From Nostocales cyanobacterium Centralia_MAG_434 (GTDB lineage Bacteria; Cyanobacteriota; Cyanobacteriia; Cyanobacteriales; Nostocaceae): a DNA stretch of 64,000 bases. Position 1 is the stretch's first letter. Each line of letters begins with the position of its first letter. Below, piece after piece: positions 24,646 through 26,652 of the stretch. Under the pieces are notes generated by a model, which saw only the letters and a program-made list of their open reading frames with translations, was not told the DNA's origin and searched no databases. Position numbers and translations under genes: made by a program. The stretch lies in contig JAJPJF010000080.1 of the NCBI GenBank assembly GCA_021324415.1, positions 1-64,000 of the forward strand, given 5' to 3'.

Positions 24646-24846
24646 ATGAATATTAGACTGTATCAACCATCAGATGCTGAGTCAGTCACTACCCTTTGGA
24701 AGGAGGTGTTTCCTGATAACCCGCCACACAGTATTCCAGAAGTGATCATTAGCAAAAAGCTTTCTTTACAGCCAGAGTTATTTTTCGTGGCGGAGATTGA
24801 TTGTGCGATCGCTGGTACAATCATGGCAGGATATGATGGACACCGT
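24646..24846 (+). pseudogene. GNAT acetyltransferase, 5' part, split by IscB element
   Basis: The first 67 codons encode the N-terminal half of a GNAT N-acetyltransferase (MNIRLYQPSDAESVTTLW, then FFVAEIDCAIAGTIMAGYDGHR). The IscB element interrupts the frame right after the CGT codon at 24846; reading into the element adds ten foreign residues before a stop. The remaining 70 codons (with stop) are at 26443-26652 and the phase is exactly kept. So the original gene had about 136 residues, and it is disrupted here. Confidence 0.88.
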
Positions 24847-25085
24847 CAGGGCTCTCTAGTTGAGTGTCAACCCCATACCTAAAGGCTAGGGGCTTGGTAG
24901 TTGACTCCACCTGACCAGACTATCGTTTAGGGCAAGTGTTAAAGAACCTACTCCGGGATGCTCGCTAGTTCCGTGACCCTAGAACCGAACGATTAAACAG
25001 GCTTACAGAGAATAAACCAGTGTCGTTTGGAAAGTACCGACCCTAAACACTGTCGAAGCACACATTACTCTTAAAAGTTGCAGAA
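24829..25085 (+). ncRNA. candidate omega RNA of IscB
   Basis: The 200-bp noncoding stretch between the left end and iscB is where IscB omega RNAs lie (established for the family: guide at the 5' end, scaffold next, IscB gene downstream). It has an outer stem GTCAAC (24866-24871) with GTTGAC (24900-24905) around a CCCC...GGGG hairpin, then further structured text up to about 25070. The guide would be the roughly 16 bases of GNAT sequence left of 24847. Boundaries are estimates; transcription is not shown by the sequence. Confidence 0.6.
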
Positions 25086-26360
25086 ATGCAAAATTATGTT
25101 TTCGTGATTGATACTGAATTGCAACCACTTAACCCAGTCACCCCAAGACGGGCACGAGAATTGCTAACCAAAGGCAAGGCTGCTGTGTTCAGAATGTATC
25201 CGTTCACAATTGTCTTGAAGCATGCCGTCCTTAATCCCGTTTTGCGCCCACTCACAATTAAGTTAGATCCGGGTAGTAGAACAACAGGTATTGCTTTGTT
25301 GGATGGAGAATCGGTTATCTGGTGTGCTGAACTAGAACACCGAGGATGGCAAATCAAAAATGCAATTGAGTCTAGACGTTCACTGCGTCGTGGTCGTCGT
25401 CATCGCAAAACCCGTTATCGTGCTCCAAGATTTAATAACCGCAAACGTCAAGAGGGTTGGCTTGCCCCGTCATTAATGCATCGGGTTGTGAGTATTGAGA
25501 CTTGGGTAAATCGCCTTTGTCGATATACTCCTGTTACCAATTGCGTGATGGAGTTGGTGAAGTTTGACACCCAAAAGATGCAAAACCCGGAGGTAGACGG
25601 GGTGGAGTATCAACAAGGAGAGATAGCGGGTTACGAAGTACGCGAATACCTATTAGAGAAGTGGGGACGCAAATGTGCTTATTGTGATAAACAAGATGTG
25701 CAATTGCAGATAGAACACATTCATCCACGCGCTAAGGGTGGTAGCAACCGTATCTCCAACCTCACCCTAAGTTGCGAAAAGTGCAATCAAAACAAAGGAA
25801 CCAACTCGATTGACGAATTCCTCAAAAAGGATTGTACGCGACTAGAGAAGATTAAGCGACAGGCTAAAGCGCCCTTACCAGACGCTGCTGCTGTCAACTC
25901 TACTCGTTGGAAGTTGTACAACACTCTAAAGCAAATTCTGCCAACTTCCACAGGTACGGGTGGGCAAACCAAGTTCAATAGAACCCGACTTGGATTAGAA
26001 AAGCAGCATTGGATTGATGCCGCGTGTGTTGGGGATGTAGAGACAATTAAGTTATTGACCAATCAGCCATTGCGTATTAAAGCGATGGGTTGGGGCAATC
26101 GCCAAATGTGTGGAACCGACAAATACGGATTCCCCATTCGTCACCGAGAACGCAAGCAAGTTCACTTTGGGTTTAGAACGGGCGATATTGTTAAAGCGAT
26201 TGTCGAGAAAGGCAAAAGGGCGGGTAAACACATTGGTCGTGTTTTATGTCGCACTAGAGGTAGTTTTGATATCTCCACTAAATCAGGAAGAGTAACTGAT
26301 ATTAGCTACAAATACTGCACACACATTCACAAAAAGGACGGGTACAATTATGCGTTCTAA
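25086..26360 (+). CDS. iscB: IscB RNA-guided nuclease
   Basis: A 424-residue IscB. Order: PLMP-like N-domain (PLNPVTPRRARELL, about 14-27), RuvC-I with D61 (KLDPGSRTTGIAL), arginine-rich bridge helix (about 97-122), RuvC-II with E156 (VMELVKF), HNH with zinc cysteines C197/C200 and C230/C233 and H211 (EHIHPRAKGGSN), RuvC-III with H308 and D311 (HWIDAACVG), and a C-terminal TAM-interaction-like domain ending HKKDGYNYAF. All catalytic residues are present, so it is probably active. IscB cuts DNA matching its omega-RNA guide next to a TAM and helps to keep the element by cutting empty sites (inferred for the family). The ATG fits the usual start. Confidence 0.95.
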   Translation: MQNYVFVIDTELQPLNPVTPRRARELLTKGKAAVFRMYPFTIVLKHAVLNPVLRPLTIKLDPGSRTTGIALLDGESVIWCAELEHRGWQIKNAIESRRSLRRGRRHRKTRYRAPRFNNRKRQEGWLAPSLMHRVVSIETWVNRLCRYTPVTNCVMELVKFDTQKMQNPEVDGVEYQQGEIAGYEVREYLLEKWGRKCAYCDKQDVQLQIEHIHPRAKGGSNRISNLTLSCEKCNQNKGTNSIDEFLKKDCTRLEKIKRQAKAPLPDAAAVNSTRWKLYNTLKQILPTSTGTGGQTKFNRTRLGLEKQHWIDAACVGDVETIKLLTNQPLRIKAMGWGNRQMCGTDKYGFPIRHRERKQVHFGFRTGDIVKAIVEKGKRAGKHIGRVLCRTRGSFDISTKSGRVTDISYKYCTHIHKKDGYNYAF

Positions 26361-26368
26361 GATATCTG

Positions 26369-26389
26369 GACGGGGACTAAAGTCCCGTC
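26369..26389. repeat. right-end inner hairpin of IscB element
   Basis: GACGGG(G)ACT pairs with AGTCCCGTC around a two-base loop, nine bases past the IscB stop. It may end the iscB transcript or belong to the right-end structure read by a transposase. Confidence 0.6.
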
Positions 26390-26442
26390 GGTCTTCACCC
26401 CCATGTCTAAAGCCAGGGGCATCCGCCCTTGGAGTTTTTGGT

Positions 26443-26652
26443 GGTTGGCTATATACAGTTGCAGTTAGCCCTCAGTATCAGAGGCAGGGAATTGGCAGAA
26501 AGCTGGTTCAGCAGGCAGAAAGCGCACTGATTGCGATGGGATGTCCCAAAATTAACTTACAGGTTCGTAGCTCCAATGCAGAGGTCGTAGCATTTTATCG
26601 ACGACTCGGCTATGCTATCGAAGAACGCATCAGCATGGGAAAAGTACTTTAA
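26443..26652 (+). pseudogene. GNAT acetyltransferase, 3' part
   Basis: This half holds the acetyl-CoA binding core: GWLYTVAVSPQYQRQGIGRKLV (V-strand and QxxGxG/A loop), then the MGCPKINLQVRSSNAEVVAFYRRLGY end and a stop. It joins the 5' part in phase. An ATG-like start at 26350 would translate it with a foreign N-terminus, but that product would lack half of the fold, so I treat it as disrupted. Confidence 0.85.

What the first reader, a model, noticed from the sequence alone, without database searches (positions are those of the whole stretch)
24646..26652. IscB element whose empty site can be rebuilt: scarless split of a GNAT gene
Joining 24646-24846 to 26443-26652 gives an uninterrupted GNAT frame of 136 codons across the junction (GYDGHR then GWLYTVAV). 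Junctions are fixed except for a shared GT, and no target duplication is present. A natural occupied site with known original sequence allows direct prediction of guide (about 24829-24846) and TAM (first bases of the right flank, GTGGTT or GGTTGG). The choice GTGGTT fits the first five positions of NWRRNA reported for OgeuIscB.
Basis: partly seen in the sequence, partly recalled or inferred. Interest (0 to 1): 0.8.

Follow-up and report, generated by a model that had tools for sequence, protein, structure and literature searches.

The report
IscB transposon in a GNAT gene
A small jumping gene that carries IscB, an RNA-guided DNA cutter related to the ancestor of Cas9, sits inside an acetyltransferase gene of a cyanobacterium so cleanly that the original site, the RNA guide and the motif it needs beside its target can all be read from the sequence; it is an ordinary but unusually well-resolved member of a known family.

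Summary
Confirmed, with the ends made exact. A 1,596-bp IscB element (omegaRNA plus a 424-aa HNH-IscB, no transposase gene) interrupts a GNAT gene without loss or duplication. Eleven relatives carry the uninterrupted gene, ungapped across the junction, ten of them beside the same VOC gene. So the element is 24845-26440, the 16-nt guide ends at 24844 (GGATATGATGGACACC, not 24846), and the TAM is GTGG(TT), not GGTTGG. In 62 IscB elements the first TAM base switches with its partner base in the transposon-end guide (8 of 8 well-supported independent switches), as the IS608 TnpA targeting model predicts; our element is one of two exceptions at the fourth TAM base. The guide fits only its own empty site: the one near-match in the genome, a paralogous GNAT, has three mismatches, and 8 of 11 orthologues lack the TAM through a silent difference. 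Activity and the donor transposase are inferred. New member of a known kind.

The parts
24646..24844 (+). 5' part of the GNAT (PRK03624-type acetyltransferase) gene; its last 16 nt serve as the omegaRNA guide
   Evidence: NF002959 positions 7-72, E=1e-18; 11 intact orthologues
24829..24844 (+). predicted 16-nt omegaRNA guide GGATATGATGGACACC (host sequence)
   Evidence: element starts at 24845 by copy comparison and by the omegaRNA P1 helix; guide length follows OgeuIscB (PMC9640706)
24845..26440 (+). the IscB element, 1,596 bp, IS200/IS605-type, without its own tnpA
   Evidence: empty site in relatives; conserved ends in relatives
24845..25068 (+). omegaRNA scaffold (HEARO, RF02033). The Rfam match covers 24866-25068, but P1 starts at 24845
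   Evidence: Rfam 93.8 bits, above gathering; P1 GTCAGG 24845-24850 pairs with CCTGAC 24910-24915 and covaries in relatives; fold
24871..24892 (-). subterminal hairpin at the omegaRNA side (IS200/IS605 right end on the bottom strand), also a hairpin of the omegaRNA
   Evidence: CCCC..TTTAGG..GGGG on the bottom strand, same form as the other end (sequence; fold)
25086..26360 (+). HNH-type IscB, 424 aa; RuvC D61, E156, H308, D311 and HNH H211 with HNH core present
   Evidence: NF040563 E=1e-138, PF14239 and HNH domains, residues, match to OgeuIscB and other solved IscBs
26399..26419 (-). subterminal hairpin at the IscB 3' side (IS200/IS605 left end on the bottom strand): CCCCTGGCTTTAGACATGGGG, nearly identical to that of a TnpA element in the same genome
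   Evidence: sequence; L150, C211 TnpA locus: CCCCTGGCTTTAGACAAGGGG
26420..26424 (-). left-end DNA guide region (plus strand CATCC, bottom strand GGATG) that pairs with the transposase target, i.e. the TAM
   Evidence: covariation with the TAM across 62 elements; IS608 precedent (PMC5934647)
26441..26446 (+). TAM in the right flank, GTGG(TT)
   Evidence: RTGR at the same place in the relatives with a resolved end
26441..26652 (+). 3' part of the GNAT gene
   Evidence: NF002959 positions 73-141, E=1e-25; PF00583

Best explanation
A non-autonomous IS200/IS605-type transposon carrying HNH-IscB and its omegaRNA inserted into a GNAT gene at GGATATGATGGACACC|GTGGTTGG. A Y1 transposase (TnpA) supplied by another element peels it out and pastes it as single-stranded DNA next to a short target (CCAC on the bottom strand), chosen by base pairing with a guide at the transposon's end; this leaves no duplication. 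That target, read on the other strand, is the TAM. The omegaRNA takes its guide from the 16 host bases just outside the left end. When the element leaves, the rejoined site (guide match plus GTGG) can be cut by IscB-omegaRNA, and repair from a copy that still holds the element would restore it. The occupied site is not cut, because GTCA (pyrimidine at position 3) stands where the TAM should be. Shown here: the insertion, the exact ends, the RNA and protein parts, the TAM and the guide-target covariation. Inferred: cutting, restoration, and TnpA acting in trans.
For: Intact orthologues in 11 genomes, same neighbours. IscB and omegaRNA families well above cut-offs, catalytic residues kept. Ends identical in form in relatives and in near-identical copies at different sites: left |GTCA, right |RTGR. 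omegaRNA P1 starts at the element's first base and covaries: both variable pairs kept in 64 of 66 elements with a single candidate, many pair types, 0 of 20,000 shuffles. End guide against TAM: letter 1 complementary in 55 of 55, letter 4 in 53 of 55; 9 further elements, some from other phyla, agree; 8 of 8 supported independent switches of letter 1 go together, p=0.008; without choosing the boundary by hand 40 of 43 agree. Eight near-full TnpA genes in the genome, one with almost the same end hairpin.
Against: No activity was measured. No TnpA in the genome was found whose own end guide specifies this target: the one with the matching hairpin carries guide GCAAG and sits at TGAC. This element's end guide (GGATG) predicts GTGA, while the flank is GTGG: one of two exceptions among 62. 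The element is single-copy here, so no recent jump of this very element is seen.
Confidence: 0.93

Rival explanations
1. The ends are 24847-26442 (guide to 24846, TAM GGTTGG).
For: The shared GT makes this junction equally good in the window alone.
Against: Relatives and near-identical copies all begin GTCA and end just before RTGR; P1 of the omegaRNA starts with that GTCA; TAM letter 1 pairs with the end guide only in the other register.
Confidence: 0.03
2. GT is a 2-bp target-site duplication made by a DDE or other duplicating transposase, not an IS200/IS605 event.
For: GT stands on both sides of 24847-26440 and once in the empty site.
Against: GTCA is a fixed part of the element's left end whatever the flank, and the right flank begins AT in many copies whose left end stays GTCA, so the two are not copies of each other. 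End hairpins and guide-target pairing are those of IS200/IS605.
Confidence: 0.02
3. A dead relic: the element can neither move nor cut, and the guide only records where it landed.
For: No tnpA inside; single copy; the end guide mismatches its target at one position (A against C), which could impair excision.
Against: Full-length IscB with catalytic residues, omegaRNA with an intact covarying helix, both end hairpins, an uneroded GNAT frame on both sides (suggesting a recent insertion), and TnpA genes elsewhere in the genome.
Confidence: 0.25

Closest known systems
OgeuIscB (OMEGA IscB, PDB 7XHT, 7UTN, 8CSZ)
   Same: PLMP, RuvC, arginine-rich helix, HNH and C-terminal region order; 5' guide followed by an omegaRNA scaffold; 3' TAM with purines at positions 3 and 4 (NNRR, PMC9640706)
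   Different: 424 against 496 aa, low identity; HNH of the canonical cysteine-bearing type; TAM shows G1, T2, G3 in every near relative with a resolved end, although that may reflect the transposase target more than the nuclease
HEARO RNA (Rfam RF02033)
   Same: whole-model match at 93.8 bits
   Different: about 21 nt more between the element edge and the hairpin; Rfam places the start at an inner GTCA (24866), 21 nt inside the true start, which would give a wrong guide
IS608 / ISDra2 (IS200/IS605 with TnpA and TnpB)
   Same: subterminal hairpins, scarless insertion beside a short target, DNA guide next to the hairpin that pairs with the target (PMC5934647)
   Different: no tnpA or tnpB, cargo is IscB; the pairing register inferred here has one more unpaired base than the IS608 tetranucleotide guide
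IscB elements of Scytonema, Tolypothrix, Brasilonema, Nostoc, Microseira (72-79% identity)
   Same: same ends, omegaRNA and TAM class GTGR
   Different: different insertion sites and guides

Membership tests
IscB (OMEGA RNA-guided nuclease) | PLMP, split RuvC, bridge region and HNH with catalytic residues | tested here: met
   NF040563 E=1e-138 over residues 5-316; PF14239 and HNH; D61, E156, H308, D311, H211
IscB (OMEGA RNA-guided nuclease) | omegaRNA directly upstream, ending near the start codon | tested here: met
   RF02033 match 24866-25068, IscB starts at 25086; P1 to 24845
IscB (OMEGA RNA-guided nuclease) | guide equals the flank outside the left end, TAM in the right flank | tested here: met
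   empty site in 11 relatives; RTGR in the right flanks
IscB (OMEGA RNA-guided nuclease) | RNA-guided cleavage of double-stranded DNA | not testable with these tools
   needs biochemistry
IS200/IS605 transposon | subterminal hairpins, no target duplication, insertion beside a fixed short target | tested here: met
IS200/IS605 transposon | end guide complementary to the target | tested here: met
   letters 1 and 3 of the TAM complementary in this element; letter 4 mismatched here, 53 of 55 overall, covariation
IS200/IS605 transposon | Y1 transposase gene inside the element | tested here: not met
   only IscB within 24845-26440; TnpA genes elsewhere in the genome, hence filed as a non-autonomous member mobilised in trans, not as an autonomous IS
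GNAT acetyltransferase PRK03624 | full profile when the flanks are joined | tested here: met
   positions 7-72 and 73-141; orthologues

The most novel reading that the evidence does not exclude
Across IscB elements the TAM is written twice: once in the flank, which IscB must recognise, and once as its complement in the transposon-end DNA guide that tells TnpA where to land. The two switch together in evolution (ATGA, GTGA, GTGG, ATGG), so the TAM of an uncharacterised IscB can be read from the element alone. No description of this for IscB was found in the papers searched.
Probability: 0.4. Interest if true: 0.55.

Novelty: new member of a known kind. Interest (0 to 1): 0.42.

Why it matters
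It gives a compact (424 aa) IscB with a fixed scaffold start, guide and TAM prediction, backed by a natural empty site, so an assay can be set up without a TAM screen. It also shows that a covariance-model start can misplace the guide by 21 nt, and that TAMs of IscB elements can be cross-checked against the transposon's own end guide. It is otherwise an ordinary member of a well-described family.

Tried and rejected
Alternative junction 24847/26442 and TAM GGTTGG: rejected. GT as a target duplication: rejected. Rfam start 24866 as the scaffold start: rejected, because P1 pairs from 24845 and the inner GTCA is not kept in relatives. Homing into the paralogous or orthologous GNAT: judged unlikely, because mismatches fall at TAM-proximal positions 2, 5 and 8 (paralogue) and 8 of 11 orthologues read GCGG, and OgeuIscB does not tolerate mismatches at positions 1-14 (PMC9640706). 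Whole-RNA folding energy is not better than shuffles, so it was not used as evidence; the covariation was. A first automatic hairpin finder failed (and in part), so the ends were read from its output by eye and then checked with a rule that does not look at the guide. Pairing at the other end (bottom strand CCAAG with TGAC) fits this element but not all relatives, so no claim is made.

Full report
What is there. The window belongs to a cyanobacterial genome of 8.4 Mb in 551 contigs. At 25086-26360 lies an HNH-type IscB of 424 aa (NF040563, E=1e-138; RRXRR and HNH domains; nearest solved structures are IscBs). Upstream is an omegaRNA (HEARO, RF02033, 93.8 bits against a gathering score of 83). 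There is no transposase gene inside. On either side are the two parts of a GNAT gene.

The empty site. The two GNAT parts match one profile at positions 7-72 and 73-141. Joined, they give 136 codons and a stop. A search of 193 genomes of the family with the joined protein found 11 uninterrupted orthologues at 71-79% identity, all ungapped over the junction. The VOC gene that follows is beside it in 10 of 11 and the DLH gene that precedes it in 7 of 11, so these are true orthologues with an empty site. Neither GNAT part carries a stop or indel, which suggests a recent insertion (inference).

The ends. The window alone leaves two bases open (GT). Four lines settle them. First, the same element type in relatives at 57-79% identity begins GTCA (GTAA in a minority) whatever precedes it, and is followed on the right by RTGR. 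Second, near-identical copies at different sites in one genome or in related genomes lose similarity at |GTCA on the left and just after RTGA on the right, which is what is expected if RTGA is a fixed target beside the element. Third, the first helix of the omegaRNA pairs GTCA plus two variable bases with two variable bases plus TGAC; the variable pairs covary (AC/GT, GC/GC, GG/CC, GA/TC, GT/AC and others), both kept in 64 of 66 elements with a single candidate, reached in none of 20,000 shuffles (relatedness is not removed by that test). In this element the helix is 24845-24850 with 24910-24915. Fourth, the end guide, next paragraph. The element is 24845-26440, the guide ends at 24844 and the TAM begins at 26441. 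Rfam's start at 24866 is an inner GTCA; using it would put the guide inside the element.

How the site was chosen. In IS608 the transposase TnpA finds its target through base pairs between a short guide next to the end hairpin and the target tetranucleotide, which stays beside the left end; changing the guide changes the target (PMC5934647). In the IscB elements the corresponding end is the one after the IscB gene, read on the bottom strand. Reading five letters after the hairpin and four letters of flank on the plus strand: TTTCC goes with ATGA, CTTCC with GTGA, CTCCC or CACCC with GTGG, TCCCC with ATGG. Letter 1 is complementary to flank letter 1 in 55 of 55, and letter 3 to flank letter 4 in 53 of 55. 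In the same genome other IS200/IS605 ends read CTTGC with GTCA and CTTTC with GTAA, which adds letter 4 against flank letter 3. On a tree of 62 IscB proteins letter 1 changed 11 times and the flank 11 times; in 8 of 8 independent pairs on well-supported branches they change together (p=0.008). Letter 3 changed only 4 times, too few to test alone. A rule that picks the boundary without looking at the guide gives 40 of 43, and the three failures are misread hairpins. This element reads CATCC with GTGG, so letter 3 predicts GTGA: an exception, by a mutation after insertion or by landing at an imperfect site. A related lineage reads CACCC with GTGG (L047).

What the guide can reach. Searching the genome for guide plus TAM with up to three mismatches gives one place: a paralogous GNAT, GGATATGAAGGGCATC-GTGGTT, with mismatches 2, 5 and 8 bases from the TAM. 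OgeuIscB does not cut with mismatches at positions 1-14 (PMC9640706), so this paralogue is probably spared. In 8 of 11 orthologues the arginine codon is CGC instead of CGT, a silent difference that turns GTGG into GCGG; the other three keep GTGG with 1-3 guide mismatches. The guide is thus tuned to its own empty allele, as expected for a device that restores the element after excision, and not for spread to relatives.

What supplies the transposase. The genome has 13 matches to the Y1 transposase family, 8 of them near full length. One (C211) has almost the same end hairpin, CCCCTGGCTTTAGACA(A/T)GGGG, and is the best candidate for acting in trans. This is inference.

Limits. No cutting, no excision and no expression was measured. 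The guide and flank letters of the 62 elements were read semi-manually from the sequences and then checked. The statement that the end-guide and TAM relation is undescribed for IscB rests on six searches of an open-access library; the founding IscB paper (Altae-Tran 2021) was not read here. That flanks reveal guide and TAM is established practice for these elements (own knowledge), so the finding itself is a good example, not a new kind.

Noticed in passing
L002 (C8:10188-11462), L003 (C335:22135-23406): Two more full-length IscBs in the same genome (about 58-60% identical), with end guide TTTCC and TAM ATGA, a different TAM class from the window's element.
   Followed up: partly
L162, C235:5043-5064: A paralogous GNAT in the same genome carries the only near-match to guide plus TAM, with three mismatches at third codon positions.
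   Followed up: yes
26350-26652: An ATG inside the element's end opens a 100-aa frame that runs in frame into the GNAT C-terminal part; it may be chance.
   Followed up: no
24845-24866: The omegaRNA of this element and its closest relatives has about 21 extra nt between the element edge and the Rfam HEARO start, so model-based guide calls would be wrong.
   Followed up: yes
L004-L008: Several short IS200/IS605-type ends (about 80 bp) in the genome share the IscB element's end hairpin but carry other target guides (TGAC, TTAC).
   Followed up: partly
L080, L081, L087, L101, L120 and others: A second group of IscB elements has a longer, different end hairpin (CCACTGA...CAGTGG followed by GTCTCCTGGAGG) and ATGA flanks; its guide register was not worked out.
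   Followed up: no
L047, L048, L049: The same IscB insertion is shared by three genomes; one copy (L048) has lost its left end upstream of the omegaRNA's 3' half.
   Followed up: no
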